In this document: piece after piece, positions 38,884 through 58,351 of the stretch
How positions within the stretch are numbered: the first letter of the stretch is position 1
Layout: each line of letters opens with the position of its first letter
NCBI RefSeq assembly: GCF_000003815.2
Contig: NC_049983.1
Span: 6,831,840 to 6,895,839, forward strand
DNA from: Branchiostoma floridae
Taxonomy: Eukaryota > Chordata > Leptocardii > Amphioxiformes > Branchiostomatidae
DNA: 64,000 nt
Reading direction: 5' to 3'
Position numbers and translations under genes: made by a program
The notes under the pieces: model-generated
Database searches by the model: none
Told to the model about the DNA's origin: nothing
The model's input: only the letters and a program-made list of their open reading frames with translations

Positions 38884-41800
38884 TTAAATGTTCAATCTGT
38901 CCGGTGGCCTTCCCCGCCTCCTGGACCGGGTAAGCTCTTGAGGAGGTGATGGTGCGTCACCCACGTTCTGCCCTGGACGTGCCGGTGTGTTACACACATT
39001 CTGCCCTGGATCCCCATGCATGTGGCAGAACCACTCCTCCTCAGTGTTTACTGCGGCAGCCTGTTCTTGAGTTAGCTTCCTCCAGGTACCACAGCCATCA
39101 CACTGTACCCAATCCTGGTGCTCTACCTCCGGCTCCAACTCCTCCTGCACCTCTCTCTCCGCCACCTCTCTCTCCGCCACCTCTCTCTCCGCCACCTCTC
39201 TCTCCGCCACCTCTCTCTCCGCCACCTCTGCTCCTGCTTCCTCCTCTTCCTCAGGCTGTGCCTTGCAGGCTTTCAGCCTGTTGAAATGTACTATTACACG
39301 TTTCCTGCCTCTCTCTTTTTGAATTCTGTATGTCACCAGTGAGAGTTTCTTGACAACCCGGTATGGCCCCTGCCACTTGGGGTAGAACTTCTTGCTTAAA
39401 CCCCGAGGGGTTGCTGGTGCGGTAAGCCATACTCGATCTCCTACTTCAAACCCTTTTCCATGACTCTGACGGTTGTATACGTCTTTCTGGCGCCTGTGTG
39501 CGGCTGTCATGTTTTTCCTCGCTCTATCATAGGCCAGTGCCAGCTCGTCTCTTACTACTTTTGCCTGGCTGTTAACATTGCCTGCCTCTCCCAACCTTGG
39601 GACCGGCCACATTACGTCGGCGGGTATTCTTGCCTCCTCGCCGTAGGTTAAGAAGAAAGGGGTATATCCCGTGCTGGTGTGAACACTTGTCCTATAGGCG
39701 AACAGCGCGGGTTGCAACCTGGTGTCCCAATTGTTGTGGCTATCATTCACATACATCTTGAGAATCTGACAGACTGTGCGGTTAAATCGTTCTACCATCC
39801 CATTCCCCTCCGGATGGTAGGCGGAGGTTCTGCTTTTGTTGATGCCCAACTCTTCACACAAAGCATGAACTATTTTAGAATCAAAATTCCTTCCTTGATC
39901 GCTATGCAGCTGGTAGGGAATGCCAAACCTGGTTATCCAGGTATCTATCAGAGCTGCGACTACTACGGGTGCTTCCTGATTTGGGAGGGCAACCGCCTCA
40001 ACCCACTTGCTTGCATAATCCGATATGACAAGAATGTGCTTGTTTCCCTTTTTCGTCGGTGGAAACGGACCCATGAAATCCATCGCAATTCTCTCCCAGC
40101 GAAACCCTGGAGCTGATGGTACCAATGGAGCTCGGCCTCTCTGGCCTCCTGATTTTCTCCTGGCACATTTTTCACACCCTTTGACATGTACTTCCACATC
40201 ATTGCCCAGTCCGTACCAGTAATATCGTGCTCTCACCCGTAGAAGTGTCCTGTCAACTCCCAGGTGTCCACTAAGTGCTCCCCCATGACATTCTTGGAGC
40301 ACCCGTCGTTGGAGCTTTCTCGGGACCACTAGTTGTAGCTTGTTCGTGTTATTTGTGGTAAAAAACTTCCTATATAGCACCCCATCATGGACCTCCATCC
40401 GGTCCCGGTCGTTCCAGTAGTGAGTAGCCTGCTTACTCAGTGGTGTGGGACGAGCGGTCTCTTCGGTGTCGCCGGCTTCCAATACTCTGAGAACAGGCCC
40501 GATGTCTGCATCGGCTAGCTGTAATACTCTAAGATCCTCACCCGCTGCGAGGGGTTCCACTACAGAGTCCGTAGGAGAGGTCTGAACTGACATGACCACA
40601 GCTTGCTCGTCTGACAAGCCACACTGCCGGCATGGCAACCGTGATAATGGGTCCGCATTGTTATGACTCCGCCCAGGTCGGTGTTGTACAGTGAAGGGAA
40701 AAGACGCCAGCTTTTCCAACCATCTTGCGACTTGACCTTCAGGCTCCTTAAAGGACATAAGCCATTGTAGGGCATGGTGATCTGTTCTGACAGTGAACGG
40801 AGTCCCGACTAAATAGTGACGGAAATGCCATACTGAGTCCACGAGGGCGAGCAGTTCTTTTCTGGTTGTGCAGTACTTCCTTTCCGCTTTGGTCAGTGTT
40901 CGGCTGTAGTAAGCTATAGGATGTTCACTCCCATCCACCTCCTGAGATAATACTGCACCAAGCCCCAAGTCGGATGCATCTGTGTCCAGAATGAATGGAC
41001 GGTGGAAGTCGGGAAAAGTCAATATAGGTGCACTTGTCATAGCTTCCTTGAGCCGCCTGAAGGACTCCATCTCCACTCCAGAGAACACAAAGGGGCCCTC
41101 ACTGCTGGTCAGTTTGTGAAGTGGGGCGGCAATACTAGAAAAGTCTTTTACAAACCGGCGGTAATAAGAGCAAAATCCCAGAAAAGATCTCACTTCTCTT
41201 CTGTCCGATGGAACTGGCCAATTCTTGACCGCCTCTACTTTCTTGGGGTCCGTCCCCACCCCCTTCTCGCTCACAAGGTGACCAAGGAACGACACCCTCT
41301 CTCTCAGTAATTGGCACTTAGACGTCTTGACCTTTAGACCAGCAGTCTGTAGTCTCTCTAAGACGGCTTCTAGTCTGTCCCAATGCTCTTCGAACGTTCT
41401 CCCAAAAACGATAATGTCGTCTAAATACACCAGGCATGACGACCAACATAATCCCGCCAGTACAAGGTCCATGAGACGCTCAAACGATGCTGGCGCGTTG
41501 GTTAGTCCCATCGGGAGAGTATTGAACTCGAACAAGCCTAGGTGTGTACTGAATGCTGTCTTCTCCTTATCTTGCTCTTCCAATTCTACCTGGTGATATC
41601 CACTGATCAAGTCAAGTGTACTGAAATATTTTGCTCCACCCAGGGCATCTAAGGCATCGTCAATCCTTGGCAAAGGATAAGCATCCTTCAATGTCACATC
41701 ATTCAATCTTCTGTAGTCTACACAGAACCTAGTAGAGCCGTCAGGTTTCTTTACCAGTACCACGGGTGCTCCCCAGGGCGAAGATGACTCCCGGATGATC

Positions 41801-43008
41801 CCAACATCCTTCATCCCCTGGATACAACGGGCCATTTCCTCCCGCTGCTGAGGTGAGTAGCGTCGGGGTGGTAGTTTAATTGGTCTGGCACTGCCCGTGT
41901 CGATCTTATGCTTGACCCTGTCTGTTCTACCCAGATCCAGTGGACCTCGCGAGAAGACACCCTGGAATTTGCAGACTGACTGGTTCACTCTCCGTCGTTG
42001 CTCGGGACTCAAGTCAGTCTTGTCGAGTCCGAGCTCTTGTAAGATTTTCTCCACATCTTCATCTGTAGCTTGGACAGAGGAGACAGGGTTTATGCCCCTC
42101 ATTCTGAGGACTCTCTCGGCTCTCGGCCGTCGCTTCTTCTTGCTTCTACTCGCCAGCTGTGCCCTACCATGCACCACTTCAGTGTCTCCATCCTCTAGTA
42201 TGGGGATCAGGTGTCCAACTTTAGTTCCCCGGAATAAAGTTACCGGTTCTGGGGACTTGTTGATTAGTCTGACTGGAACAGTCTCTGCTGATGGGCAAAC
42301 TACTGTTCTCGCCCCTTGAACTTCCCCCTTGTGTACATCCGTGGGTTCAAAGGAGGCCGACAACCTGACATTTTTCCAACTGTCGTTGGCGTCTTGCATA
42401 CAACCCGGGGCAAGAACCTCGTGACGCCCAGGGATGGTGACATCTTCCATCAGGCCTATCCTACACACATTTGGTTCCACAGACCTGACAGTCAACTTGC
42501 ACTGTTGACCCCGGACAGAGATGGTTTCACCCACAGTGTCTAACACAGCTTGAACAGAACACATAAAATCTAGGCCCAGGATACATTTCTCCTGCAGTCC
42601 ATGCACAACAAAAAGTCTCTTGCGAACAACTGATCCATCAATCATTAAAGGTGCCACAACAGATCCCAGGACCTTTAACATGCCCCCTCCAGCGGTAACA
42701 AATTTTTCCATACACGGTTTGAGAGGTACTTTTCCCGCTTGATCCCACAACGAAATGTCCAGACAGGATGGCCCCGCCCCTGAATCAAGTAAGGCATCAA
42801 TGTGAAAGTCCCACAATGTGACCGGTAAATATAACATCTGTCGTCTCACAGTCAAATCATCATCAGAGTCTTCATGATCAGGTGTAGTTGGAATGTTGTA
42901 CTTACTGTTGTTGAAGGATTTTGTGTTATTTCCGAGCGTACGCGCTGGAGGGCCCTTCTCATCTCCAGCGCCGACTAGTTTAAATTCTGCTGGCGCTTGT
43001 GTGGGCAT
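38884..43008 (-). CDS. pol: Pol polyprotein (PR-RT-RNaseH-IN-CW) of the Gypsy element
   Basis: Open frame of 1374 codons from the first ATG, but the true entry is by frameshift from gag, so the ATG at 43008 is probably not used. Visible parts: aspartic protease DSGA at about 75; reverse transcriptase with YLDD at 528-531; RNase H starting LDTDASD at about 674 and including TDHHALQW; integrase HHCC zinc region from about 913 (HLGVD...CEKC) and the DD35E core (MDFMG about 976, HSDQG about 1035, VERFN 36 residues on); GPY motif (WQGPYRV). Then five copies of a five-residue EVAER repeat, and a CW-type zinc finger at 1299-1339. It makes and integrates the cDNA copy. The CW finger is atypical for the family and sits where a chromodomain would be. 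Confidence 0.95.
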   Translation of the reverse strand: MPTQAPAEFKLVGAGDEKGPPARTLGNNTKSFNNSKYNIPTTPDHEDSDDDLTVRRQMLYLPVTLWDFHIDALLDSGAGPSCLDISLWDQAGKVPLKPCMEKFVTAGGGMLKVLGSVVAPLMIDGSVVRKRLFVVHGLQEKCILGLDFMCSVQAVLDTVGETISVRGQQCKLTVRSVEPNVCRIGLMEDVTIPGRHEVLAPGCMQDANDSWKNVRLSASFEPTDVHKGEVQGARTVVCPSAETVPVRLINKSPEPVTLFRGTKVGHLIPILEDGDTEVVHGRAQLASRSKKKRRPRAERVLRMRGINPVSSVQATDEDVEKILQELGLDKTDLSPEQRRRVNQSVCKFQGVFSRGPLDLGRTDRVKHKIDTGSARPIKLPPRRYSPQQREEMARCIQGMKDVGIIRESSSPWGAPVVLVKKPDGSTRFCVDYRRLNDVTLKDAYPLPRIDDALDALGGAKYFSTLDLISGYHQVELEEQDKEKTAFSTHLGLFEFNTLPMGLTNAPASFERLMDLVLAGLCWSSCLVYLDDIIVFGRTFEEHWDRLEAVLERLQTAGLKVKTSKCQLLRERVSFLGHLVSEKGVGTDPKKVEAVKNWPVPSDRREVRSFLGFCSYYRRFVKDFSSIAAPLHKLTSSEGPFVFSGVEMESFRRLKEAMTSAPILTFPDFHRPFILDTDASDLGLGAVLSQEVDGSEHPIAYYSRTLTKAERKYCTTRKELLALVDSVWHFRHYLVGTPFTVRTDHHALQWLMSFKEPEGQVARWLEKLASFPFTVQHRPGRSHNNADPLSRLPCRQCGLSDEQAVVMSVQTSPTDSVVEPLAAGEDLRVLQLADADIGPVLRVLEAGDTEETARPTPLSKQATHYWNDRDRMEVHDGVLYRKFFTTNNTNKLQLVVPRKLQRRVLQECHGGALSGHLGVDRTLLRVRARYYWYGLGNDVEVHVKGCEKCARRKSGGQRGRAPLVPSAPGFRWERIAMDFMGPFPPTKKGNKHILVISDYASKWVEAVALPNQEAPVVVAALIDTWITRFGIPYQLHSDQGRNFDSKIVHALCEELGINKSRTSAYHPEGNGMVERFNRTVCQILKMYVNDSHNNWDTRLQPALFAYRTSVHTSTGYTPFFLTYGEEARIPADVMWPVPRLGEAGNVNSQAKVVRDELALAYDRARKNMTAAHRRQKDVYNRQSHGKGFEVGDRVWLTAPATPRGLSKKFYPKWQGPYRVVKKLSLVTYRIQKERGRKRVIVHFNRLKACKAQPEEEEEAGAEVAEREVAEREVAEREVAEREVAEREVQEELEPEVEHQDWVQCDGCGTWRKLTQEQAAAVNTEEEWFCHMHGDPGQNVCNTPARPGQNVGDAPSPPQELTRSRRRGRPPDRLNI
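38992..39114 (-). other. CW-type zinc finger encoded at the Pol C-terminus
   Basis: Residues about 1299-1339 read DWVQCDGCGTWRKL, about 12 residues, then EEWFCHMHGD and a final C six residues on. This matches the CW pattern WxQCDxCxxWRxL...WxC...C, with both tryptophans and all four zinc cysteines present. CW domains of known chromatin proteins bind the histone H3 tail methylated at lysine 4. Use as a target-site reader here is inference. Confidence 0.85.
39156..39235 (-). repeat. 15-bp coding minisatellite in pol
   Basis: Five tandem copies of a 15-bp unit (plus-strand CTCTCCGCCACCTCT phase) encode EVAER repeats, an acidic/basic helical linker between the integrase and the CW finger. Confidence 0.9.
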
Positions 43009-43784
43009 TTGGCAACGAAATGCCCCTCCTCATGGCAAAAGAAGCACTTTCCTTTGTTGCTAACCGGGGCTTCGACCCGTGGCTTGTTGGAGACCGCGGC
43101 CTCGACTCGTGCCAGGCAAGCTTCCATGCTCCGCATACGAGCTTCCAAACCATCCACGCGAGCCGCCATGGCGTCGGCAGAAGACCTTGCTCCGGCCCCT
43201 TCTCCGGTTTCGCGGTTGTTCACCATGTGCACAGGTGGAGGGGGGTAAGTAGTCGCCTGGCTTTGACGGAGGTTATCTCCAGCAGCGAGCTGGGCTGCTG
43301 CACGACCGGCATCGGCGATGGTTTCCGGACGGGGAAAGATGTCTCCCAACTTCTCAGCTAGCCGGGGTGGTTTCATTCCGGTGACGAAAAAACTAACTCC
43401 CATTTTTTCTCGTTCATCCTTGTCTGTGTTGGGATATCCCGCCAACAACAGTCCCCGGAGACGGACTTCGTAATCGAGAAGGGACTCCGTGCCACCTCTG
43501 GTGAAATGAAACAGTTCGTCCAAAGCCCGCTGTTGCTTTATTCCGGCGCCAAATCTTGCCCTCATGGCCGCGGTCAGCGTGGCGTAGTCGGCCGTCGTTG
43601 TCTCCCCCAAGCTCTCCGCATACTCCAGAGCTGGACCATCCAGGTGCAGCATGAGGTACGAGGCCTGGTTCTCCGGCTTCCACTTCCGAAGCCTGGCCAG
43701 CCGGCCAAACTGCGACAACCACGAATCGAAGTTGGCACTCCGCCCTGAGAATTTGGCCAGAAGAGAATCAACCTTTGCCGCCAT
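42975..43784 (-). CDS. gag: Gag of the Gypsy element
   Basis: 269 aa from the ATG at 43784 (MAAKVDSLLAKF). The frame stays open upstream through the primer-binding site into the LTR, but those codons are unlikely to be translated; an upstream in-frame ATG at 43907 lies inside the LTR. It contains a capsid-like helical region (LHLDGPALEYAESL, LDELFHFTRGGTESLLDYE, GMKPPRLAEKL) and one zinc knuckle CFFCHEEGHFVAKC (CX2CX4HX4C). It forms the particle and binds RNA. It ends with UAG immediately after the slippery heptamer. Confidence 0.93.
   Translation of the reverse strand: MAAKVDSLLAKFSGRSANFDSWLSQFGRLARLRKWKPENQASYLMLHLDGPALEYAESLGETTTADYATLTAAMRARFGAGIKQQRALDELFHFTRGGTESLLDYEVRLRGLLLAGYPNTDKDEREKMGVSFFVTGMKPPRLAEKLGDIFPRPETIADAGRAAAQLAAGDNLRQSQATTYPPPPVHMVNNRETGEGAGARSSADAMAARVDGLEARMRSMEACLARVEAAVSNKPRVEAPVSNKGKCFFCHEEGHFVAKCPHKRQQNLN
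42978..42984 (-). promoter_or_regulatory. -1 ribosomal frameshift heptamer U UUA AAC
   Basis: Gag codons TTA AAC preceded by T give a canonical X XXY YYZ site, followed at once by the gag stop TAG. Slipping back one base enters the pol frame (reading F K L V G A G). The pol frame is offset from gag by -1, as required. A downstream stem or pseudoknot was not modelled. Confidence 0.85.
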
Positions 43785-43852
43785 TTTTCCTAGAACTTGA
43801 ACACAACTAGACAGCTTCCCGCTCGCTCGCGTTGACCGTGTCCTCCGCTGTG

Positions 43853-43868
43853 CCCACCTCTGACACCA
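43853..43868 (-). promoter_or_regulatory. Primer-binding site, probably tRNA-Leu type
   Basis: One base after the 5' LTR the minus strand reads TGGTGTCAGAGGTGGG. The leading TGG pairs with the CCA end of a tRNA, and the following bases fit a leucine tRNA acceptor/T arm from general knowledge. The tRNA identity is not checked. Confidence 0.65.
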
Positions 43869-43869
43869 G

Positions 43870-44103
43870 TGTAACAAAGGAGTAGTCCTACCTGTATCTC
43901 TTGGCACTTCTCCTTAGGCCTCGGTGATTCTCCGCTTCTCGTAACTTGTCGCGTAATGGCTAAGTCTAACACTACCTACTCTAAGCGTGCACGCTCAACT
44001 AACTCCTGGAACTTTCTAACATGAACTCAACTCGAACTCAACATCCGGGGTCTTCTCCTTGACCTCTTTGACCCCTTTTCAACTCCTGATTATCCCGGTT
44101 ACA
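43870..44103 (-). repeat. 5' LTR
   Basis: 234 bp, same sequence as 38610-38843 by eye. It should contain the element's promoter and polyadenylation signals; these were not resolved. Confidence 0.95.
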
Positions 44104-45011: not shown

Positions 45012-45230
45012 GTGAGGAATTGTAACAGTTAGGTTATATGTCAAAAGTAAATACCCATGAGAGTTCCTTTCTCGACCATAGTTTTGATTTGAATAACAAT
45101 GTCCGGAACGCAGTGGCGCCTGCAAAATGACGCAATGGGCTGTTCCAAAAAATAACTGTAGAGGGGGGGGTGGAAGAGGCTGGATTGGAGGGGGGGGGGT
45201 AGGGTTCAAGCGTCTGGATTTGGAATGCGG

Positions 45231-45425
45231 TCTCACTAAATACCGAAAACAACCGAAAACAACCGAAAACAACTTGACATCTACCGAAAACAACCGAAAA
45301 CAACCCGTAAAATACGGAAAACAATGAAAACAATATGATATCTACCGAAAACAACTCCATAAATACGGAAAACTCCTATATAAATACCGAAAGCAACTCA
45401 ATAAATACCGAAAACAACTCGAAAC
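45231..45425. repeat. Left-arm array of 10-bp units
   Basis: Repeated CCGAAAACAA with spacers such as TAAATA and TTGACATCTA, starting CTCACTAAATACCGAAAAC. It is the inverted counterpart of 48126-48376. Confidence 0.85.
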
Positions 45426-45956
45426 CTCCTAAAACACGCATGAACATCCGATCAGAACTCCAAACAGCCGGAAAATGACTCTTAAACAACTACTTATTGC
45501 TATTTTATTTTCATCTACTCGTTACTATCCCTTGCATTATTTTCTCCTTGGCCGAGGGAGAGAATGGGGTGATTCTGGAGGATTTTTGCAGCAAAGGGGA
45601 AGTAGACTGTGGAAACACCTTTCTATCACACACTGTTTTATTTTGATCATTTAGTTTAATCCAGAATAAGGGGCCTCTGTGGTGATACACGTTTGCGGTT
45701 TGTCCATTTAAACCGATTTGTTTTGATAGCGGAATGCGTTAAAATTGAGCAAGAAATGTACTAGATTGTTTTGGTTGCTACTAGTAGAAGAAAATGTAGT
45801 ACACATGAGGTAAATGCGCAGCAGGCAGATTCAACAATAATTGATAAGCAAACCCATTTTCGAAGCAGTTTTGTCGGGGGATAGTAGTGACTGCGATTTA
45901 CTGCTCCACCGTAACCTCTGCTTGGAGTTACACAATAGATGCCAAGTAGTATATCT

Positions 45957-46005
45957 TCTTGATCTTGATCTTGATCTTGATCTTGATCTTGATCTTGATC
46001 TTGAT
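45957..46005. repeat. (CTTGAT)n microsatellite, LINE 3' tail
   Basis: Eight CTTGAT units. It stands just 3' of the LINE coding end on the minus strand, as expected for short tandem tails of some LINE families. Confidence 0.85.
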
Positions 46006-47112
46006 TGGGTACTGGACAACGCCCCTCAGTTGGGGCAAAGCGTCCAGGGGGAGTGCTGCGCCTTAATGTCCCCTGAGGCGTCGGAGAACTGCCTCCTTGA
46101 ACTTTGGAGCGTCTGTGATCTCCGTGACCTCGTACGGTAGAGAGTTCCAATCTCTCACGGTTTGTGGGAAGAAGGAATGTTTGTAGCAGTCTTTGTGAAA
46201 AGGTAGAGCCTTGTAAGAATTTGGGTTTGAGTGTCGCGATTGGCGCGGTACAGGCTTTAGATGAGTTTCGACCGGTAGGGCTACTTTATGGTGTCTTGCT
46301 TTCTGTAAAATTGTTAATCTATTTGCTGTCCTTCTGTTGCGTCAAGTATCCCACCCCAAATCAGAGACAAGTTTGGTGACACTATCATAACTATGATACG
46401 AATTTGTGACAAATCTGGCCGCTCTTTTTTGAACGGACTCTAACTTAGCAATGTGCTCTTTGTGGTATGGATCCCAGGCAGCGCTGGAATACTCTAAATG
46501 TGGTCTAACAAGGGATGTATATGCATTTGATTTGACTGATTTGGGGCAGTTATAAAGATTGCGTCTCACAAAGCCTAACGTCTTGTTAGCCTTGGAAGCA
46601 CTGTACTGTATGTGTTGTGACCAAGAGAGCTGGTTGTTGAGTGTGACTCCTAAGTATTTGTGGTTGTTAGTCTCGGCTAGAACATGACTTCCTAGTTTGT
46701 AGTCGTAGAGTTTAGGTTTACGTTTGTGGGTATAACGCATAACAAAACATTTGTCCGGGTGTAATGTCATCTGCCATGTGTTTTGCCATGTATCTAATGT
46801 ATTGATGTCCTCTTGTAAGAGGGTGTGATCTCTGTCACTGTTTATCTCCCTGTAAATGACGCAGTCATCCGCAAAGAGACGGATGTTAGAGTTGAGGTTG
46901 TCGGCTAAGTCATTAATGTACACTAAGAACAGTAGTGGTCCGAGCACGGTACCCTGGGGCACTCCAGAGACTACCTCTGCCCACTCTGAGTGCTCTCCCC
47001 CAACTACCACTCTTTGTTTACAATTTTTGAGGAAATTAGATATCCAGTGAAGTACCTTACCCCTAATACCATAATTTTGGAGTTTTAGGAGTAAGCGATC
47101 ATGAGGTACTTT

Positions 47113-47618
47113 TGTAAGAGGGGTAAAAATACACTGTTTGGAAGAATTTGTTGTATCATTTAAAGCAAGATGTTATGGTTATCATTTTGTCATGTACATG
47201 CTCCGAGAAGCTACAGACAGCCCATCTGGTAACTGTAATTAGTCTGTTATTGTTGTGTGATAACTGTTGACAAGGTGTTATCCTTTGTATTGTTCTTTGA
47301 TGAACTGAAGATGAAAAGAACAACAAAGCCAATAGCAGGTACATGTTATAATTATTACCATATGCATAGCTCGTTCAGTTGTAGACAATGTCTGGATATG
47401 TGTCTGGGATTTTGAAATAAAGAAGCCAGGAGTTGTTGGGTTGGGGACAGTTGGAGCGAGAACAGAACAGAGAGAGGGTCCCAACACACAGCTCCCGTGC
47501 GTGTCAATGGCATGCCCTGTGTCTTGCGTGTGTTTCTTTAGTCCTGTAGTTTAATAGTCCCTCGTGCAGCATTCTAAAGAACCTGGGGTCCACAACATCG
47601 GCCCCACCACTTCTTACA
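47113..47618. mobile_element. Solo LTR, 506 bp
   Basis: The segment starts TGTAAGAGGGG and ends CTTCTTACA, and is flanked by CTTT at 47109-47112 and 47619-47622. Removing it with one CTTT restores the LINE reading frame (AFDKVPHDRL), proving it is an insertion. AATAAA occurs at about 47416 on the plus strand, suggesting plus orientation. There are no internal retroviral-type genes. Confidence 0.88.
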
Positions 47619-48125
47619 CTTTGTCAAAAGCTTTTGCGAAGTCGGTTATAATCATATCTGTTTGCGACCTGGTATCTAAAGAATGGGCTAAGTCAGTTGT
47701 AGTTAAAATAAGTTGGGTTTCACATGAACGCTTTTTCCTAAACCCATGCTGCTTGTCAGATAATATAGAGTATTTGTCAAAATGATCCATCATCTGTGAT
47801 TGCACTATGTGCTCCATAACCTTACTACAAACACATGTGAGAGAAACAGGACGGTAATTTGCAGGATCAGTCCTGTCCCCCTTTTTATCCATTGATGAGT
47901 TTGCGAGTTAACCAAGCAGTCCCCGTTTATAACATACAGGATACTTACAGGATCCGTGAATCTGAATTCGAACATTAATATATTCCAAAAGGCAAAGGAG
48001 ATCGTTGACTCTATTATTACTAATATTGTATTAATAACATGGGTTGTCGTAGCCTAACTTCTGTCCAAAATAAAATCAAAATTATTAAATAATAACCCAT
48101 TGAAATGATTGTCATTTGTTTATGG

Positions 48126-48376
48126 TTGTGTCGAGTTGTTTTCGGTAGTTAAAAGTTGTTTTCGGTTGTTTTCGGTAGTTAAAAGTTGTTTTCGCTTGTT
48201 TTCGGTATTTAGTGAAAGTTGTTTTCGGTTGTTTGCGGTTGTTTTCGGTAATTAGTGAAAGTTGTTTTCGGTTGTTTTCGGTATTTAGTGAAAGTTGTTT
48301 TCGGTTGTTTTCGGTATTTAGTGAAAGTTGTTTTCGGTTGTTTTCGGTTGTTTTCGGTATTTAGTGAGACCCCTAG
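48126..48376. repeat. Right-arm array of 10-bp units
   Basis: Repeated GTTGTTTTCG with ATTTAGTGAAA spacers, ending TTCGGTATTTAGTGAGACCCC. The same units are found inverted in the left arm. Confidence 0.85.
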
Positions 48377-48654
48377 GGAGGGTTTGCGACAATTTGGACT
48401 TGGAACTAGGGAGGGTTTTGGCAATTTTGGATTGGAACTAGGGAGGGTTTTGGCAATTTTGGATTGGAACTAGGGAGGGTTTGGGGCATTTTGGAGGCGC
48501 CACTGCGTTCCGGACATTGTTATTCAATGTTACCCAACTTTAGAAGCACTCTGTGAACGTGGATGCTTTTAATACGTTTGTCCACCCATATTTCACCACA
48601 CCTCTATATCCATCTACAGGAACATTCTAGAATACAGAGGAAGACACATTCAGC

Positions 48655-51600
48655 ATGTTGCTTGCTGTCAGTGCAGAACCCCACCAGAAACCAGGCATTC
48701 CAACCAAAATGGCCAATGAATTGCCAGGTAAGGATGGAACTTCATTGGAAGTCATACATTTCTTGCCTTAGCTAGAAGGTTTGGGCCTCATGGGGACTTT
48801 TCTTGGAACTGCAAGAGCTCATTATTCTTTGTTTTTAGATATTTAGACTGGTTTTTGTAAGCATTTTTGTGGAATTTCTTGAATCCAATTTATCAATTTC
48901 TTTGTTGTTTGATATGATGTACATCTAGAGAAGATTCCGCCATTTTGTCTGTTTTTTTAAGCACAACGAACACTTCATCTTCTCCCTGCTGTGAAATCAA
49001 AGTCCAGTGAACTTAAATGTATTTACAGTACTGAAGTCATAATTTGTGCTTTAATAATACCTACAGGTGAAGATATGCATCACACCAGCATATTGAAGGG
49101 GATTTGCAGACGGTGCGGACAGCATATCAAGGATCGCCCAATACTCAGTACCAAGTATGCGTCTGAATTTCGGGACCTGTTTGGCATCGATCTTTCCACT
49201 GACAATCCCAACATCCACCCACCAAATATCTGCCACAAGTGCCGGTGCAGGTTTGACTGGTATAAGAAACACCCAAAGAAGGAGACTTATCAACCAGTGA
49301 GATCTCCATATGTGTTCATGCAGCATAGTAATGAGTCATGTGAAATCTGCAATGATCACGCAGCACGTGAAAAGAGTCGCCATCTACCCGTAAAACGAGG
49401 TCGGAAACGCAAAAGGACAGGACATGCGGGTCCAGGTCGAGGAGGAAAGAAGATGGCACAGAAGACAGGTGTGGACACCATTTCTTCTTTCTCATATAGT
49501 CACATGGTACGTACTGTTGACCAATCAGAGGGCCCCATTCTTCCCCATAACCTTAGAGCAGAACGTCCTACAATCTTCCACAGAACATGTTAAAAAGTCT
49601 GGACGTCCCAAAATCATTCGCCAAACTTGTAAGATGTTATGCAAGATGCCAGAAGCTTCCCGCAATAGACATAACAGGACTTTTTTCTGCATACCTGCAC
49701 GGGAGCAGGTAACATTGAAAATTACCTGCACCAGACAAATTTTACAGGCACCAATCTGAATTTAGGAAGTATGGATCATATTAAAATTGGTCAGGAACCA
49801 TTGCTATTTTTTCTTTTATTATACTTTATTGTCATTCTCACATAGGGCTGTTTAGCCACAGTCGACGCTGTAGGGCTGATATCAATTAGGATTTTACCAT
49901 GGTCAATATTGACCAAAGGAGGCCATATAAAAAAAAAACTTTATAGTCATGGTAACAGTCAATACAGCTAATAACATTCCACATGCACCTACATCATAGG
50001 ACATTTATGTATAAAACCCAGTACATGGACCAGTGCAGGTTAGGTGCAGGTCACTATGCACATGTACCGCAGCCGTGCGATTAAAACAAAACCAGCTCAC
50101 AAAACTACAATCTCTGCATTTTCCATAAGATTTGAGCACAATGCATAGGCACACCAGATGTTGGTACTCCTTCCACTAATGCCAGTAATTGTCTTCTAGG
50201 TTATGAATGCAGACCGATGAAAAATGATACCGCAGTGAAGAGCATCATTACATTTTGTACACCCACCAAGCATGCTCATTTTCCAGACAGTTTACAAGGT
50301 GGTGGCAATGACTTCACTAGGGACCATATCACTGAAGGGGTAAGTTGTTTTGGAAATTATTATCAAGCCATACCATCACAGAAAATTTAGTAGTTGGAGC
50401 TCTAATAACGTTATTGACTTATGAACATGATGAAAAAAAATTAAAAAGAGACTGTATGTGTGTGCTGTGTGACCTGAGAACAAGTGACCACCAAACCTAA
50501 ACAGTCTCGGCTAGGTGTTTGTGTGTGTTTGTGTGTGTGTGTGTGCGTCTGTGTGTGTGTGCTGTGTGACCTGAGGACAAGTGACCACCAAACCTAAACG
50601 GTCTTGGCCAGCTGACAAAGCACTCCTTGTCACACTGATAAATAGAGACCCCATATGCACATTTATCATGTTGGTCATAAGAGGGATTATACCACGAGTG
50701 CTGAACTCAGCAAATCTAAACCTCTAGGTCCAGAGGCAGGGTTACTTACCCGAAAACAACATACACAACTTGTTTGTTTATTCAGACCCTTTGAGTACAT
50801 AGTGGAAAATAGGGCAGCAAATTTCCTTGCTATTTCAATAGCAGGGAACTATTAGTACATTTCTACAGGAAGGCATTGCTAGCCCTCCTCTTTAAACATG
50901 CTTGCGGTTCATACATGGGATTCACATTTTCGGTCCCATCCAAAAAGCAGGTGCAGCGCCAACCGAGATGCCCAACACAGGAATAAACCAGGGTCACCTT
51001 GTTTTGATTGACAACAGTAAACTGTACATGTAAAGATGCTGCCAGTTTAGCCACAGTGACAGCCTTCAAACACAATTAATCATTTTTTTTAAAATATTGG
51101 TTTTACAGGACAGAAACCCACCAATGACGGGTGTCGTAGGCTTCTCCAAGGAGACGACCCTTGCCGTCTTACCCAGGATGCACATGGAAGAACTACTGTC
51201 CGAGCTGAATCGGAGAAACATTGTGGTGAAACTAGCAGGTGAACACCAGAGGGGTAGGGGTGACTTGGAACATGTGCTGAGAGAGGTCATGACAAGGGAG
51301 TATGAAGTAGAGGAAGGTGAGGGAATGGACACAAGTAACACAAGCTCTACATTCGAGCACAGCTGTAGTAACACTAGCTCAGCATTCCAGCACTGTTCTC
51401 AGCTTAAAGAGGGTGGCAGCAGCGAAGTGCTTTCCAGGCCAAACAATGACCAAGCTTCTTCACAAAATCTTCAAGAACTTTCTCAGTTCACAGAAAATGA
51501 AGGAGCATCTAGTAGGCAAGCACCAGACATCCCCGAGACTTCAAGTACTGAGACAAGCCCTGAACAGGTCCAGGTAAAGAAAGAGCCTAAGATCGAACTT

Positions 51601-54600
51601 GACTTTGAACAGCACACAAACAGTGTTGCAGGTGTGACAGGACCATCTACAACTCAAACACAGTACCCTGGCATTGTATATGGGCCACAGCCTAACTCTG
51701 CAAGTTCACAGCCTAACTCTGCAAGTGCACAGCCTAACTCTGCAAGTTCACAGAACTTGACAGTAAAATTCAAGACAGAGCCTGGTTTGGAAGAAGAGAC
51801 AGAAGATGAACAGCTGCAGGACCTGCGGAGTGAGCTCTGTCCTTCCTCACCTGGACAACTGTCTCAAGAACTGGATAAGGTGGATGTCTCCTTAGAAGAC
51901 GAAGGATGTGGTATGCCTCCATGTGAAGAACCTGTAAAGGTGGGCTAGATACTATTGGGATTCAGACACTACACCCAGGGGTACAGACACTACTGGGGGT
52001 ACGGACACTACTGGGGGTACGGACGCTACCAGGGTATGGAAACCACAGGGGGTACAGGCTCAAGGGGTGTTGGCAATTACAGGGGTAACAAACACTCAAG
52101 GGGTTACAGACTCGACAAGGGGGGTGGACAATACAGGGGTACAGACATTACGGGCGGGATGGACAAAAAGGGGTACAAAAGGGTACAAGCAATTCAGGGG
52201 CTACAAACACTAAAGAGGGTATGGACAATATACAAGAGGTGTGGACTATACAGGCACTACAGGGGAAACTTCAGGGGGTACAGAAACTACAGGTTTATGG
52301 ACACTAATGGGGTGTATGGACACTACAGGGGCACTAACACTTAACTTTAACTGGGTAAGGACACTACAGGGTTACATATACTACAGTTTGTGCAGACAGG
52401 ACAGGGGATACATGGACATTACAGGCTAGGGGGTACAGACATTTCAGGGATAGGGACACTACAGGGGTTATTGACACTCATGTCATAAATGTGGACACTG
52501 CAGGGGTACGGACTGTTTTGGGGGTATGAACACTACAGGGAATACTGACACTTCAGGGGGTACGGAGTATGCCTATGGGGTTACAGACACTTACCTCAGT
52601 TCTTCTATGAAAGAAATATGATATAGATTTCGACTCTTTTTTTTCCAGTTGTGGGAATCACAGGAGCAACAGCTTGACCAGGGAGAACCGGAAACTGAAC
52701 CAGAAGTGCCACAGCGACAAAAGCGTTTTGCTTCAGAATCTCTACATACAAAACAGCTCGTCGAATTACAAGAAGGGAGAGTAGACAGCAGAACAGAAAG
52801 AGCAACTAGATGGGGCACAAAGCTTTTCAAAGGTGGGTACTATACATTTTCCATTGCATTGGATGATGAGCCCAATTATGTCATACCTGTGACGTGAAAA
52901 CGTTCGATACGGGTGTGACAGACCATTGCATGTATCTCACACCAAAGTTCCTCCCGAGCAAGGGGAAACTTCGGTGTGAGATGCCAATGCATTACAGGCG
53001 GATTTTTCAGCAATGCCTCACAGACTTAACTCAACTGTTTGTAGACATTCAAATATCTCTATGGTATTCTGAAAAACTGATAACATCATTATTAACAGCC
53101 TAATATGTACTGAATGAAGTGGAAAATAAATAAGAATTTTAATTGTCATTTCAGAATGGCTACAGTCAAGAGGCCTTGACACAGCATTTGAGGAGCTTCC
53201 ACCTCGAGATCTGGCAGTACTACTGAGACAGTTCTATGGAGAGGCACAGAAAGATGACGGCACTCCATATGCTAAAGCGAGCCATTCATGTCTGAGAGCA
53301 GCTATTCATCGCCATCTCACAGGACCCCCCTTCAACTGCAAGTACAATATTTTTAAAGACAAAGAGTTTCAAGCTGCCAATAAAGTGTATAACAGTGTGA
53401 TCAGGCAGCTTAAGAGAGATGGAATAGACACTAGCAAGAGCTATCCACCCATTCTAGCGTCTGACATCACTAAAATGTTCGAGACCAAAACGTTGAGTGT
53501 CGATAATCCGGTGGCCCTCCAACGACTGGTTTTCTTCTACCTTGCTTTTTTCTTCTGCCAAAGAGGGAGGGAAAATCTGAGGGACTTTAAGGTCGGTGAC
53601 TTTATCCCCAACACCGAAGGAGGAAGGAGGTACTATACTCTCAGGTACTACAAACACCAGAAGGACCACCGTGATCATCTACCCGGCAATGTTCAACCAT
53701 CACCAAGACTGTATGAATCTCCCAATAACACACGCCCCTGCCCAGTCCAGGCGTTTGAGCTGTACTGTAGTAAGCTGCACAACAGATGCCCGTACCTCTT
53801 CCAAAGACCGAGTACGCAGTGGAAGCCAAGTTCACCTGCTCCATGGTACTACGGTCAACCCGTCGGCCAGAACAAGCTTGGTGCGATGATGCGAGATATA
53901 TCCCAAGCTGCAGGGCTGAGCAAAGTCTACACTAACCACAGCATCACGTGTACTGCTATACAGGCTCTGGACAAGGCTGCAAGTTCACAGCCTAACTCTG
54001 CAAGTTCACAGCCTAACTCTGCAAGTTCTCAGCCTAACTCTGCAAGTTCACAGCCTAACTCTGCAACTTCACAGCCTAACTCTGCAACTTCACAGCCTAA
54101 CTCTGCAAGATTACAGCCTAACTCTGCAAGTTCTCAGCCTAACTCTGCAACTTCACAGCCTAACTCTGCAACTTCACAGCCTAACTCTGCAAGATTACAG
54201 CCTAACTCTGCAAGTTTACAGCCTAACTCTGCAAGTTTACAGCCTAACTCTGCAACTTCACAGCCTAACTCTGCAACTTCACAGCCTAACTCTGCGAGTT
54301 CACAGCCTAACTCTGCAAGTTCACAGAATTTGATAGTGAAAATCAAGACAGAGCCTGGACTGGAAGAAGAGACAGAAGATGAACAGCTGCAAGACTTGAG
54401 GAGTGAGCTCTGTCCTTCCTCCCCTGGACAACTGTCTCAAGAACTGGACAAGATGGATGTCTCCTTAGAAGACGAAGGATGTGATATGCCTCCATGTGAA
54501 GAACCTGTGAAGGTGGGCTACCAAATAACTTCATTATTAAGAACCTTATGCGATTTGCATGAATCACTATGTGAAAATGTAGTACCTCATGTGATACGCA

Positions 54601-57600
54601 CGAATCTTACGTGATGCACACGAACACTATGCGATTTGCACGATCCTCCGAAATCAGCCAATTACTGCTGGGTCCCGTGGCAGGCGGAGCGGGATTTTCA
54701 AAATTGTGGCTTCGGTTTTCAACGACAGAAAAATATGATGTGACGTGCAGAAATGAAGAAACATAAGTATCTCACATGTTTTTGAATATGTCTTCATTAT
54801 GGCATACATATCATGGGTAGAAACACTCAGAAACATGCCTTCTCCCAACATAGCGGCAGCGGTCGGTTTGCATAAGGTTTATACAAATCGCATAAGGTTT
54901 GTGCAAATCACATAAGCTTCGTGTGTGTCACATAAGGTTCATACATTTTTGCATCATGATTCATGCAAATCGCATAAGGTTTGTGCGCTTTCACACTGTG
55001 ATTCTTGTGTATCCACATAATGTTCGCACAAATCTCATAGGGTTCATGCAAATGCTTAGGCACCCCTGAATAACACCTGGGGGGGTACAGACACTTTGGG
55101 GTTACAGACACTACAATTGCTAGACACGACACGAGTTTAGACATTGCACCTGGGGGTTCAGACAGTGTTGGAGCTACAGATGCCCCAGGCTTGCAGACAC
55201 AACAGGGGTACAGACACTACAGGAGGTACGGACACTATAGTATGGGTTACAGATTCTGCAGGCTCGCAGACACACGAGGGGTACGGACACTACAGGAGGT
55301 ACGGACACTATGGGGTTACAGATGCTGCAGGCTCGCAGACACACGAGGGGTACGGACACTACAGGAGGTACGGACACTATGGGGTTACAGATGCTGCAGG
55401 CTTGCAGGCACAACAGGGGTATGGACACTACAGGAGGTACGGACACTATGGGGTTACAGATGCTGCAGGCTTGCAGACACATGAGGGGTACGGACACTAC
55501 AGGAGGTACGGACACTATGGGGTTACAGATGCTGCAGGCTTGCAGACACATGAGGGGTACGGACACTACAGGAGGTACGGACACTATGGGGTTACAGATG
55601 CTGCAGGCTTGCAGACACACGAGGGGTACGGACACACTGCAGGAGGTACGGACACTATGGGGTTACAGATGCTGCAGGCTTGCAGACACACGAGGGGTAC
55701 GGACACTACAGGAGGTACGGACACTATGGGGTTACAGATGCTGCAGGCTTGCAGACACACGAGGGGTACGGACACTACAGGAGGTACGGACACTATGGGG
55801 TTACAGATGCTGCAGGCTTGCAGACACACGAGGGGTACGGACACTACAGGAGGTACGGACACTATGGGGTTACAGATGCTGCAGGCTTGCAGACACACGA
55901 GGGGTACGGGCAGAAAAGGGGTAACATACAACTTACAGGGGTACAGATACTGCAGGGGGTATGGAGTAGACACTGTAGGATACTGATACTACAGACCCTA
56001 CTGGGGGTATGAACACCACAGGTGATAATGATACCTCAGGGTACGGACACTATTAATAGGGTTACGAACACTACAGTTGGTACAGACACGACATGGGGTA
56101 CAGATGCTTACCTTAGTTCTATAAAAGATATTTCTGATATAGATTTCGACTCTTTTTTTCCGGTTGTGGGAAACACAGGAGCAACAGCTTCACCAGGGAG
56201 CAGCAGAAACTGAACCAGAAGCGGCACAGGGAAGCCAAAAGCGTTTAGCTTCTCTAGATACAAAACAGCTGGATGAATTAGAAGAAGGGAGAGTAGACAG
56301 CAGAACAGAAAGAGCAACTAGATTGGGCACAAAGCTTTTCAAAGGTGGGTATACATTTTCCATTGCATTGGATGATAAGCCCAATTATGTCATACCTGTG
56401 ACGCGAAAACGTTCGATACGGGTGTTCCAGACTGGGCCATAACTTCCGTATCGCACAGGTTCGAAAGGCGTATCACACAGGCTTTCTTTGAGTAAATCGA
56501 ACCATTTCGAATGGGCCGAATACGGCACAGTTGGCAATTGGAATACCTGATTCGGACGTTGGAACATTGCTGTTGCAGCACTTTTTGTTCGAGGGCACCA
56601 AATTTGTTCAACTTCTGGTGCATTTCGCATCAAAACATGGGTTTTCTCAGGTGGGTCGGGCTGATACCTCGGGTGACACGGAATACACCGTGTTGTATTC
56701 TATATATACACAATACATGCACTGTATTTCTATGAATAAAGGTAAATGCAGTTTGTGCTGCATGTTGTTGTATTGTGTTGCACATGTGGACAGACCATTA
56801 CATGTATGTCACCAAAGTTCCTCCCGAGCAAGGGGGAAACTTTGGTTCTCACACCAAAGTTCCTCCCAAGCAAGGGGGAAACTTTGGTTCTCACACCAAA
56901 GTTCCTCCCAAGCAAGGGGGAAACTTTGGTTCTCACACCAAAGTTCCTCCCAAGCAAGGGGGAAACTTCGGTTCTCACACCAAAGTTCCTCCCGAGCAGG
57001 GGGAAAAAGTTCCTCCCAAGCAGGGGGAAACTTTGGTGTGAGATGCAAGTGCATTGCAGGGGGATTTTTCAGCAATGCCTGACTTAACTGTTTGTAGATA
57101 TTCAAATATGTGTATGGTATTATGGAAAACTAATAACATCATTATTAACATCCTAATGTACTGAATGAAGTGGAAAATAACAATTTTGATTGTCATTTCA
57201 GAATGGCTACAGGCAAGAGGCCTTGACACAGCATTTGAGGAGCTTCCACCTCGAGATCTGGCACTGCTACTGAAACAGTTCTATGGAGAGGCACAGAAAG
57301 ACAACGGCACTCCATATGCTAAGGCGAGCTACGCATATCTGAGAGCAGCTATTCATCGCCACCTCACCGGACCCCCCTACAACTGCAAGTACAACATTTT
57401 GAAAAACAAGGAGTTTAAAGCTGCCAATAAAGTGTATATTGGAGTGCTTAAGCAGCTGAAGAGAGATGGACAGGATACTGGCAAGAGCTATCCACCCATC
57501 CTTGCGTCAGACATCAGTAAAATGTTCAAGACCATTTAACGTTGAGTGTTGATAATCCGGTGGCCCTCCAACGACTGGTGTTCTTCTACCTCGCTTTTTA

Positions 57601-58351
57601 CTTCTGCCAAAGAGGGAGGGAAAATCTGAGGAATTTTAAGGTTGGTGACTTTATCCCCAACACCGAAGGAGGAAGGAAGTACTACACTCTTAAGAACAAC
57701 GAAAACCAGAAGAACCACCCTGATCGTCTACGTGAAAATCAACCATCACCAAGACTGTATGAATCTCCCAATGACACACGCCCCTGCCCAGTCCAGGCGT
57801 TTGAGCTGTACTGTAGTAAGCTGAGCAAGAAATGCATGTACCTCTTCCAAAGGCCGAATATGCAGTGGAAGCCAGGTTACCATACTGACCAGTGGTACTT
57901 TAGTCAACCTGTCGGCCAGAACAAGCTCGGCGCGATGATGCGAGACATTTCCAAAGCTGCGGGGTTGAGCAAACCTTACACTAACCACAGCATCACCGTT
58001 ACTGCTATAAAGGCTCTGGACAAGGCTGGGTTTGAACCAAGAGTTATAATGAGCCTATCCGGACACAGGACTGAAACGTCAGTCCGTAGGAACATGCGGG
58101 ATTCTGAGGGGAGGCAGAGAGAGAAATGTTCGGATGCGTTAGGAGCTGCACTCGATCCTCTCTCTTCTGACAAGATGGATGACTCTGAGGAGGGATGTAA
58201 GAACACTTTGCAGACTCCAACAGTGCAGCAACAGGTCAACCTGATCCAGGTACATGTGCCCAGGCAGGAGACAGGTCTTGTAACAGTCTACAGTCCATGC
58301 CACATGTTGATACAAACACAATTAACAACTAAAGGAGTTAATGAGCAATAA
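48655..58351 (+). CDS. RAG1-N-like zinc module joined to Crypton-type recombinase (DUF3504-like) gene, partly duplicated
   Basis: Proposed exons: 48655-48727, 49067-49468, 50200-50339, 51109-51939, 52649-52832, 53155-54512, then duplicated exons 56164-56344 and 57202-58351. Phases agree at every junction up to 54512, which is again phase 0 and could splice to the duplicate. Parts: short N-terminus; zinc module like the RAG1 N-terminal region; basic KRGRKRKR, probably nuclear; disordered acidic linker with QPNSASS repeats and KTEP motifs; SAM-like core-binding region (WGTKLFKG|EWLQ...FYGEAQKDDGTPYAKAS); catalytic-like DUF3504 region. The first recombinase copy lacks the C-terminal part; the second has a frameshift at about 57532. 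Likely a nuclear DNA-binding protein derived from mobile elements. Joining the zinc exon to the recombinase exons is inference from phase and order, and needs transcripts. Confidence 0.65.
49067..49468 (+). CDS. RAG1 N-terminal-like zinc-binding exon
   Basis: Phase 1-1 exon of 402 nt. Sequence marks: ICRRCG; then a Tyr/Phe-containing helix leading to FGIDLSTDNPNIHPPNICHKC; then W-poor spacer and SNESCEIC; then KRGRKRKRTGHAG. The order CxxC, F.ID..D...IHP..xC..C and C.IC follows the zinc-binding region of vertebrate RAG1 that precedes its RING/ZnF dimerisation domain. That region has been reported in other invertebrate mobile elements apart from the RAG1 core. There is no RAG1 catalytic core (DDE) in the window. 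If left unspliced, the frame ends 42 codons past the donor. Confidence 0.8.
50200..50339 (+). CDS. Linker exon 3 of the RAG1-N/DUF3504 gene
   Basis: 140-nt exon, acceptor TCTTCTAG and donor GTAAGT. It begins YECRPMKNDTAVKSIITFC in the phase set by exon 2 and leaves phase 0. No domain was recognised. It is supported only by splice signals and an open frame. Confidence 0.6.
51109..51939 (+). CDS. Linker exon 4, acidic and disordered with QPNSASS repeats
   Basis: 277 codons, phase 0-0 (acceptor TTTTACAG, donor AAG|GTGGGC). An N-terminal conserved-looking part (TLAVLPRMHMEELLSELNRR) is followed by low-complexity Ser/Thr/Glu sequence, three QPNSASx repeats (51692-51751), VKKEP and FKTEP (matching the sumoylation consensus hydrophobic-K-x-E), and a conserved tail LRSELCPSSPGQLSQELDK to CEEPVK. 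The tail recurs at the end of the 53155 exon. Confidence 0.7.
51957..52590. repeat. Intronic degenerate minisatellite, about 18-22-bp unit
   Basis: Irregular repeats of GGGGTACAGACACTACAGG type, starting 18 bp after the exon 4 donor and ending before the exon 5 acceptor. It is non-coding. The duplicated intron at 55080-56110 carries a related but more regular array. Confidence 0.85.
52649..52832 (+). CDS. Exon 5, start of the recombinase core-binding region
   Basis: 184 nt, phase 0 to 1. It encodes LWESQEQQLDQG, an acidic part, then LVELQEGRVDSRTERATRWG and TKLFKG, which with exon 6 forms the first helices of the SAM-like domain. The acceptor is TTTTTCCAG. A close duplicate lies at 56164-56344. 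Confidence 0.7.
53155..54512 (+). CDS. Exon 6: DUF3504-like recombinase domain fused to linker repeats (chimeric copy 1)
   Basis: 453 codons' worth, phase 1 to 0. It covers EWLQSRGLDTAFEELPPRDL, LASDITKMFET, FFYLAFFFCQRGRENLR (conserved Arg), PCPVQAFELYCSKL, GQNKLGAMMRDISQAAGLS and YTNHSITCTAIQALDKA. There the recombinase sequence stops and about 16 QPNSASS-type repeats plus the exon-4 tail (KIKTEPGLEEETEDEQLQ...CEEPVK) follow. The expected GHRTET segment is missing. The junction looks like an unequal crossover between exon 6 and exon 4. The known domain is tyrosine-recombinase derived (Crypton; vertebrate ZMYM, QRICH1 and KCTD1 relatives). Confidence 0.8.
53977..54330 (+). repeat. Coding minisatellite, 21-bp unit (QPNSASS)
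   Basis: About 16 tandem copies of CAGCCTAACTCTGCAAGTTCA-type units (Ser, Thr or Arg-Leu variants), in frame throughout. Exon 4 has only three copies at 51692-51751, so the array expanded in this copy. Confidence 0.92.
55080..56110. repeat. Intronic minisatellite, 69-bp higher-order unit
   Basis: About nine near-identical 69-bp units (55258-55915) built from three shorter units: GGGGTACGGACACTACAGGA, GGTACGGACACTATGGGG and TTACAGATGCTGCAGGCTTG. Irregular related sequence lies on both sides. The unit is a multiple of three, which creates long spurious ORFs on both strands. Confidence 0.92.
56164..56344 (+). pseudogene. Duplicate of exon 5 with a mutated splice acceptor
   Basis: Closely matches 52649-52832 (LWETQEQQLHQGAAETEPE..., ERATRLGTKLFKG), but the acceptor CCAG is CCGG here (56160-56163). 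The next AG, in ACACAG at 56173-56178, would drop only five codons and keep the frame, so the exon may still be usable. The donor AAAG|GTGGGT is intact. Confidence 0.65.
56808..57045. repeat. Intronic minisatellite of imperfect palindromes, 42-bp unit
   Basis: About 5.5 copies of a unit in which ACCAAAGTTCCTCCC is followed by GGGGGAAACTTTGGT, so each can fold into a hairpin. The equivalent intron of the first copy has only one such unit (52946-52979), so the array grew after the duplication. Confidence 0.9.
57202..58351 (+). pseudogene. Exon 6, second copy: complete DUF3504-like domain with a frameshift
   Basis: Parallel to 53155 but it keeps the C-terminus: KALDKAGFEPRVIMSLSGHR, TETSVRRNMR. 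Two extra bases (ACCATTTAACG versus ACCAAAACG) at about 57531-57540 shift the frame and create TAA; the frame resumes at 57542 and runs to 58351. The possible donor GTACATG after ATCCAG (58247) could end the exon earlier. Where active tyrosine recombinases have HxxR and a late Tyr, this reads HSIT and lacks the Tyr near RRNMR, so catalysis is unlikely even if repaired by sequence correction. Confidence 0.75.

What the first reader, a model, noticed from the sequence alone, without database searches (positions are those of the whole stretch)
48655..58351. RAG1-N-type zinc module apparently fused to a Crypton-type tyrosine recombinase domain
Seen: exon 49067-49468 carries the ICRRCG / FGIDLSTDNPNIHPPNICHKC / SCEIC pattern, and downstream exons on the same strand encode a DUF3504-like domain. 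All junctions between them are in agreeing phase, with no other gene between. Known: the RAG1 N-terminal region has a different history from the RAG1 transposase core and occurs in other invertebrate mobile elements; Crypton recombinases gave rise to vertebrate ZMYM/QRICH1/KCTD1-type genes. I know of no description of the two together. If real, the RAG1-N module also travels with tyrosine recombinases, not only with DDE transposases.
Basis: partly seen in the sequence, partly recalled or inferred. Interest (0 to 1): 0.9.

Follow-up and report, generated by a model that had tools for sequence, protein, structure and literature searches.

The report
RAG1-type zinc exon beside recombinase gene
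In what looks like a lancelet genome, a zinc-binding piece related to the front end of the antibody-recombination protein RAG1 lies, as an in-phase exon, ahead of a gene derived from a mobile element's tyrosine recombinase; the recombinase part has lost catalytic residues, so this is probably a captured, non-cutting DNA- or chromatin-binding gene rather than a new transposon, and transcripts are needed to prove that the two parts are really joined.

Summary
The observation mostly holds. Exon 49067-49468 is a RAG1-N ("Chapa") zinc module: Pfam RAG1_imp_bd above cut-off, RAG1 the only PDB match up to E 10, 0 of 20000 shuffles as good. Exon 53155-54512 is DUF3504 (1.3e-14). Six exons from 48655 to 54512 agree in phase. 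Beyond that the model fails: in a tandem duplicate, eB' lost its acceptor AG and eC' is frame-shifted.

The window's own genome changes the interpretation. The gene belongs to a C5 family (e3-eA-eB-DUF3504) whose recombinase lacks the HxxR arginine and the tyrosine; relatives on C12 and C2 that keep both show no RAG1-N nearby. So RAG1-N is not shown to ride with a working tyrosine recombinase. The zinc exon is symmetric (1-1) and nearest (52%) to a module heading an unclassified, repeated and largely decayed ORF. At C19 the module shares one ORF with a P-element-like transposase; at C11 the same two parts lie in different frames. The module thus has several partners in one genome. Splicing of e2 to e3 is inferred; no transcripts were available.

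The parts
48655..48727 (+). e1, possible first coding exon (phase 1 out); weakly supported, may be untranslated because an ATG lies at 49075 in e2
   Evidence: donor ranks 1 of 521 GT sites; no homologue with E below 1 in the C5, C11 and DUF3504 loci searched
49067..49468 (+). e2, RAG1-N / Chapa zinc module, symmetric phase 1-1 exon of 402 nt, ends in a basic KRGRKRKR stretch
   Evidence: PF12560 E 1.2e-5 above cut-off; mouse RAG1 E 0.0018; shuffles; nine shared C/H columns in 15 rows; donor rank 7 of 521, acceptor rank 26 of 760
50200..50339 (+). e3, linker exon; homologous exons with the same splice sites upstream of eA in two other C5 loci; contains an ATG of its own
   Evidence: 44% aa identity E 1.6e-5 to C5:7256354-7256217; shared acceptor and donor, open frames in all three
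51109..51939 (+). eA: ~60-aa N-terminal domain of a large family in this genome, then acidic/Ser-rich region, SQPNSA repeats and VKKEP/FKTEP motifs (SUMO-site-like, recalled)
   Evidence: 73 matches genome-wide, 47 on C19
52649..52832 (+). eB, short exon before the recombinase domain
   Evidence: homologue E 5.9e-13 at C5:7245 kb, 4.7e-9 on C12
53155..53977 (+). eC, Crypton-derived recombinase: QRICH1-like N-terminal part plus DUF3504, cut off after NHSITCTAIQALDKA
   Evidence: PF12012 1.3e-14; PF25561 0.0012, below cut-off; alignment
53978..54512 (+). duplicated tail of eA (eA') in frame with eC through expanded SQPNSA repeats
   Evidence: 54259-54520 is 94% identical to 51686-51947; 92.9% over 182 aligned bases
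56164..56344 (+). eB', duplicate of eB with lost acceptor (GG)
   Evidence: 91.6% identity; acceptor
57202..58351 (+). eC', duplicate of eC with the C-terminal part present but a +2 frameshift; followed by AATAAA signals
   Evidence: 88.6% identity, frameshift; AATAAA at 58347, 58354, 58361

Best explanation
The window holds a lancelet-type chimeric gene made by exon shuffling between mobile-element parts. A RAG1-N (Chapa) zinc module, whose nearest relative heads a repeated, largely decayed ORF of unknown class, was taken in as a symmetric 1-1 exon in front of an existing C5 gene family (e3-eA-eB-DUF3504). The DUF3504 part descends from a Crypton-like tyrosine recombinase that lost the HxxR arginine and the tyrosine, so it should not cut and rejoin DNA. 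Most likely it works as a nuclear DNA- or chromatin-binding factor: zinc module and basic stretch for nuclear entry and partner binding, eA for protein contacts, dead recombinase for DNA binding. Shown: domains, phases, exon homologies, lost residues, tandem duplication. Inferred: the e2-e3 splice, capture rather than chance neighbourhood, and the molecular role. This copy is itself damaged at its 3' end.
For: RAG1-N and DUF3504 above curated cut-offs. Six exons in phase, 996 codons open; the chain e2-e3-eA is third of 31 in-frame chains by site score, and its e3 and eA borders recur in the paralogues. e3 has homologues before eA in two other C5 loci with the same splice sites; one of them has no Met, so if translated it needs a preceding coding exon ending in phase 1, the phase in which e2 ends. 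Similarity of e2 to the C11a module stops at 49452, 16 bases before the e2 donor, and no other part of that ORF matches the window. eC against C12: Ka/Ks 0.15, simulated neutral 5% bound 0.57; eC against C5:7243 kb 0.42, bound 0.54. Within the window: Ka/Ks 0.357, simulated neutral 95% range 0.54-1.31, no stop where 5.4 are expected, P 0.006 (389 codons, the frameshift spot left out). Changed residues: window HSIT and RRNM, C5:7243 kb HSVT and HRW; C12 HSVR and RKY, C2 HSIR and RRY; the C2 ORF also passes the Phage_integrase cut-off. That these are catalytic positions is recalled plus PMC3212892.
Against: No transcript was seen. The gene at C5:7243-7256 kb shows no RAG1-N upstream of its e3, so the exon is not shared by the family and could be an unspliced insertion. 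e3 in the window has an ATG of its own (so does the L048 copy), so translation could start there without e2. e3 shows no purifying selection (Ka/Ks 0.84 and 0.70; neutral medians 0.76 and 0.79), eB gives 1.13 and eA against L048 2.36 on few changes. Intron B-C pieces of the duplicate are 92% identical, so Ka (0.085) is no lower than intron divergence there. The chain ranks 32nd of 660 when frame is ignored. PMC4967905 (abstract and outline seen) argues that many novel lancelet domain combinations are gene-prediction errors. The copy is truncated and partly broken.
Confidence: 0.5

Rival explanations
1. e1-e2 are a fragment of a C11a-type element that landed upstream of an unrelated eA-eB-DUF3504 gene; the phase match is luck and no fusion protein is made (the downstream gene may start at the ATG in e3).
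For: Nearest relative of e2 is a repeated, largely decayed ORF (52%; 30 further partial matches, all on C6 and C165). The kin locus at C5:7243-7256 kb lacks e2. e3 has an ATG. At C5:7237.8 kb another RAG1-N exon, 54% identical to the C9a module, lies between an eA copy and a dead DUF3504, showing that such pieces reach this family separately.
Against: No other part of the C11a ORF matches the window; e2 is bounded by good splice sites, is symmetric in the needed phase, and keeps nine C/H positions and an open frame.
Confidence: 0.34
2. The whole locus is a decaying pseudogene after the tandem duplication, once a fusion but no longer making a protein.
For: eC lacks its C-terminal part, eB' lost its acceptor, eC' is frame-shifted; Ka about equals B-C intron divergence.
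Against: First copy open over 996 codons; no stop where 5.4 expected in the compared duplicate exons.
Confidence: 0.12
3. A mobile Crypton that carries RAG1-N as an N-terminal domain.
For: RAG1-N plus DUF3504 in one open frame.
Against: Catalytic positions lost in both C5 genes aligned; the relatives that keep them lack RAG1-N; among the places found, RAG1-N and DUF3504 lie within 10 kb of each other only on C5.
Confidence: 0.03

Closest known systems
Domesticated Crypton genes with DUF3504 (KCTD1, KIAA1958, ZMYM2/3/4, QRICH1, WOC; PMC3212892, passages seen)
   Same: DUF3504 derived from a Crypton recombinase, incomplete catalytic tetrad, domain embedded in a much longer protein, often with other DNA-binding domains
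   Different: No RAG1-N module is mentioned for them in the passages seen; this one is a low-copy C5 family with an eA domain abundant in this genome
RAG1, RAG1-like proteins and ProtoRAG (PMC7204232, PMC4411706, passages seen)
   Same: N-terminal zinc module with the same C/H pattern and a following basic stretch
   Different: No RING and no RAG core found here
Chapaev transposons (Chapa domain, PMC4411706, passage)
   Same: Chapa domain near the N-terminus; ORFs of this look, some with RING, occur in this genome
   Different: e2 groups with C11a, not with the Chapaev-like modules (support 94/98, flagged for long branches); partner is not a DDE transposase
N-RAG-TP of Aplysia (known here only from PMC8355894, passage seen)
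   Same: RAG1-N-like sequence in a transposable element without a RAG core; could be akin to the C11a ORF

Membership tests
RAG1-N / Chapa zinc module | profile match above curated cut-off | tested here: met
   PF12560 25.4 bits vs 23.3
RAG1-N / Chapa zinc module | C/H positions shared with RAG1 and other modules | tested here: met
   nine C/H columns invariant in 15 aligned rows, 14 of them different; the mouse row is two pieces
RAG1 / RAG1L protein | RAG1 catalytic core downstream | tested here: not met
   no + strand ORF over 121 aa lies between the e2 and eA frames; no such profile in the 15 ORF stretches scanned; other ORFs were not scanned
RAG1 / RAG1L protein | RING (ZDD) | tested here: not met
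   no RING profile in the ORFs holding e2, e3 and eA; also absent in echinoderm RAG1L (PMC7204232)
DUF3504 | profile match above curated cut-off | tested here: met
   55.0 and 48.4 bits vs 29.7
Crypton transposon | complete R-H-R-Y tetrad | tested here: not met
   HSIT in place of HxxR, and no Tyr in eC'; eC lacks the last region
Crypton transposon | mobility (copies at unrelated sites, terminal repeats) | tested here: inconclusive
   close eA copies on C5 and C8, but not shown to be whole copies; ends not defined
Domesticated Crypton gene | recombinase domain without full tetrad inside a longer open frame | tested here: met
   sequence level only
Domesticated Crypton gene | conservation between species and expression | not testable with these tools
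   no relatives of G000 held, no transcripts; protein database switched off

The most novel reading that the evidence does not exclude
The RAG1-N/Chapa module is a general, promiscuous N-terminal zinc domain of animal mobile elements: in this one genome it heads RING-bearing Chapaev-like ORFs, a P-element-like transposase, an unclassified repeated ORF and probably a Crypton-derived gene, so the RAG1 N-terminus was one of many captures rather than an old companion of the Transib core.
Probability: 0.4. Interest if true: 0.8.

Novelty: new variant of a known kind. Interest (0 to 1): 0.6.

Why it matters
The origin of the RAG1 N-terminal region is debated. PMC4411706 (passage) states that the Chapa domain was not encoded in other known transposable elements and infers an ancient fusion with the Transib-type core; PMC8355894 (passage) cites an Aplysia element made of RAG1-N-like sequence and favours later joining. 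Here the same module shares one ORF with a P-element-like transposase, heads an unclassified repeated ORF, and lies in phase before a Crypton-derived gene. If confirmed, this argues for repeated capture and gives concrete loci in which to test it.

Tried and rejected
AlphaFold2 models of e2 (mean pLDDT 49.1) and of the catalytic part of eC' (36.8) were too poor for a fold search; none was made. Viral contigs was scanned with eC and with e2 and genome contigs with e2; none gave a relative, as expected for an animal gene. NCBIfam gave only matches far below cut-off. A direct e2-eA splice at the reported sites is out of frame; a direct in-frame chain through another donor scores low. The first chain search missed e3 because its acceptor threshold was too strict and was repeated. 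An RFX-like look of an ORF upstream of e3 in L048 was a guess by eye; Pfam gave no match. An assembly artefact as cause of the duplication was judged unlikely because the exon copies differ by 7-11%, but was not tested with reads. For the selection test the bases around the frameshift were left out. On re-checking, odds were lowered slightly (main reading 0.55 to 0.50, novel case 0.45 to 0.40): e3 has its own ATG, and at C11 (17.08 Mb) the module and the P-like part are in different frames.

Literature searches for the fusion: 'DUF3504'+'RAG1' (1 paper, PMC3212892, which does not mention it in the passages seen), 'Crypton'+'RAG1'+'tyrosine recombinase' (12 papers listed, one read in passages), 'Chapa domain' (1 paper). 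No RAG1-N with DUF3504, and no Chapa with P-element-like transposases, was seen in the listings and passages; most listed papers were not opened, subscription papers are not held, and Kapitonov and Jurka 2005 was not held.

Full report
What was checked. The ORF 48961-49593 matches Pfam RAG1_imp_bd at 25.4 bits (cut-off 23.3, E 1.2e-5), and among 177635 PDB sequences three match up to E 10, all RAG1. Its local alignment score to mouse RAG1 153-259 is 96; the best of 20000 shuffles is 65 and the next best of 358 window ORFs of 60 aa or more scores 40. The first CxxC motif, tested apart, is reached by 23 of 20000 shuffles. The DUF3504 match of the later exon is secure (1.3e-14).

Gene structure. 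Exons e1 48655-48727, e2 49067-49468, e3 50200-50339, eA 51109-51939, eB 52649-52832 and eC 53155-54512 join in agreeing phase with no stop, 996 codons. If the last donor is not used the frame runs on to a stop at 54612-54614. Donors of e1 to eC rank 1 to 8 of 521 GT sites; acceptors of e2 to eC rank 1 to 48 of 760 AG sites. Beyond 54512 lie duplicates of the eA tail, eB and eC: spacing 2573, about 3512 and about 4047 bases, 92.9, 91.6 and 88.6% identical. The joint lies at about 53978, between the recombinase exon and the SQPNSA repeats, so the first copy lacks the end of the recombinase. The second copy keeps it but has lost the eB' acceptor AG and has two extra bases near 57533-57540. AATAAA occurs at 58347, 58354 and 58361.

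Selection. Between the copies Ka/Ks is 0.357, below the 95% range of a neutral simulation (0.54-1.31), and there is no stop where 5.4 are expected (P 0.006; 389 codons, frameshift spot left out). Against this, B-C intron pieces are 92% identical, so Ka (0.085) is not below intron divergence there; A-B intron pieces are 84 and 67% identical. eC gives Ka/Ks 0.15 against C12 (neutral 5% bound 0.57) and 0.42 against C5:7243 kb (bound 0.54). e3 (0.84, 0.70) and eB (1.13) show no constraint by this measure, and eA against L048 gives 2.36 on few changes, other eA pairs 0.24-0.48.

The window's genome. The window is C5:6831840-6895839 of a 513,431,437-base, 431-contig assembly. That it is a lancelet (Branchiostoma) is recalled from size and gene look, not tested. 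DUF3504 has 14 matches at about ten places, the e2 protein 14 matches up to E 0.01, itself included. Among these, both lie within 10 kb of each other only in the window and in a cluster at C5:7.24 Mb. By plain arithmetic, 14 modules and 10 places within 5 kb on one strand would be expected by chance about 0.0007 times, but the counts are lower bounds and the two C5 loci are kin.

The C5 family. At C5:7243-7256 kb (minus) the order e3', eA, eB, DUF3504 recurs; e3' matches at E 1.6e-5. A third e3 precedes an eA copy at C5:7203 kb (L048), where no DUF3504 match was listed. The three e3 copies share the acceptor TAG|GTT, the donor GAAGGG|GTAAGTTG and an open frame; the copy at 7256 kb has no Met, so if translated it needs a preceding coding exon ending in phase 1, while the window and L048 copies do hold an ATG. 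e2 begins and ends in phase 1. No e2 match lies upstream of e3' as far as 7275 kb, apart from unread runs of N; an ORF upstream looks like an SLC45-type transporter by eye. So e2 seems an addition to the window copy. At C5:7237.8 kb another RAG1-N exon, 54% identical to the C9a module, lies between a second eA and a dead DUF3504; whether it is spliced to eA is unknown. Such modules reach this family more than once, and simple insertion is possible.

The recombinase. C12 and C2 relatives (73.6% and 61.5% to eC) keep HSVR/HSIR, SGH and Y; the window has HSIT and no Tyr, C5:7243 kb HSVT and no Tyr. No match to e2, e3 or eA better than E 0.1 was found in the 9 kb upstream of either. So the C5 genes look like catalytically dead derivatives.

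Partners of the module elsewhere. Besides e2 and the exon at C5:7237.8 kb there are 12 modules; nine of their ORFs were scanned and all nine exceed the RAG1_imp_bd cut-off. C15 carries a RING above cut-off and C9a one just below (20.7 vs 21 bits); C6, 95% identical to C9a, C3 and C9c were not scanned. C10 and C9c share a short C-terminal motif with C9a, and C3, whose ORF runs into N, has the C9c module. These are called Chapaev-like from this look and the literature, not from a transposase match. C9b and C9d have RING matches above cut-off and end in a CxxCx3GHx4C motif like that of RAG1L (by eye; PMC7204232), with no RAG core profile in the ORF. C19 holds the module and a P-element-like transposase in one ORF (TNP-like_RNaseH_N 8.6e-22). 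At C11:17.08 Mb (C11b) the module is followed by a stretch 51% identical over 478 aa to the C19 transposase part, but in another frame. C17 has a similar module with no such partner found in the 10 kb read. C11a, nearest to e2 (52%), heads a 1060-aa ORF with no other Pfam match; the last 600 residues of that ORF have 30 further partial matches, all on C6 and C165, 17 of them with stops, consistent with a mobile element though not proof. In a tree of 15 modules e2 joins C11a with support 94/98; the program warns of long branches.

How it probably works. The zinc module and the KRGRKRKR stretch would bring the protein to the nucleus and to partners, as the RAG1 N-terminal region does (recalled for RAG1, inferred here); the dead recombinase would bind DNA or protein, the role proposed for DUF3504 in PMC3212892. 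eA, a domain with 73 matches, 47 on C19, is of unknown function. None of this was measured.

Verdict. The wider result, that the RAG1-N module has several unrelated partners in one genome, is the more interesting one.

Noticed in passing
window 38884-43913 (-): LTR retrotransposon of Ty3/Gypsy type with a CW-type zinc finger (PF07496, 2.4e-12) at the end of its Pol ORF, residues 1307-1350; possibly a chromatin-reading module comparable to the chromodomains of chromoviruses (recalled).
   Followed up: no
window 45089-48527: Inverted repeats (47 nt, 94%) bound a stretch with inner TTTTCGGT arrays in opposite orientation and reverse-transcriptase remnants inside; no clear target-site duplication by eye.
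   Followed up: partly
L041:5191-7491 (C19); L042 (C11:17.08 Mb): RAG1-N module and P-element-like transposase in one ORF at C19; at C11 the same two parts lie side by side in different frames, 51% identical in the transposase part.
   Followed up: partly
L026:5322-8501 (-) (C11:3.63 Mb): 1060-aa ORF: RAG1-N plus an unclassified body with 30 further partial matches on C6 and C165, 17 with stops.
   Followed up: partly
L036, L037 (C9:2.71-2.73 Mb): RAG1-N plus RING plus a CxxCx3GHx4C tail like RAG1L, but no RAG core profile in the ORF.
   Followed up: no
eA domain, window 51109-51340; C19 clusters: A ~60-aa domain without Pfam match has 73 matches, 47 of them on C19, in ORFs of up to 1248 aa.
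   Followed up: no
L038 (C10): The Chapa module of this ORF also matches the zf-AD domain weakly (4.9e-4, below cut-off), hinting at kinship of the two zinc domains.
   Followed up: no
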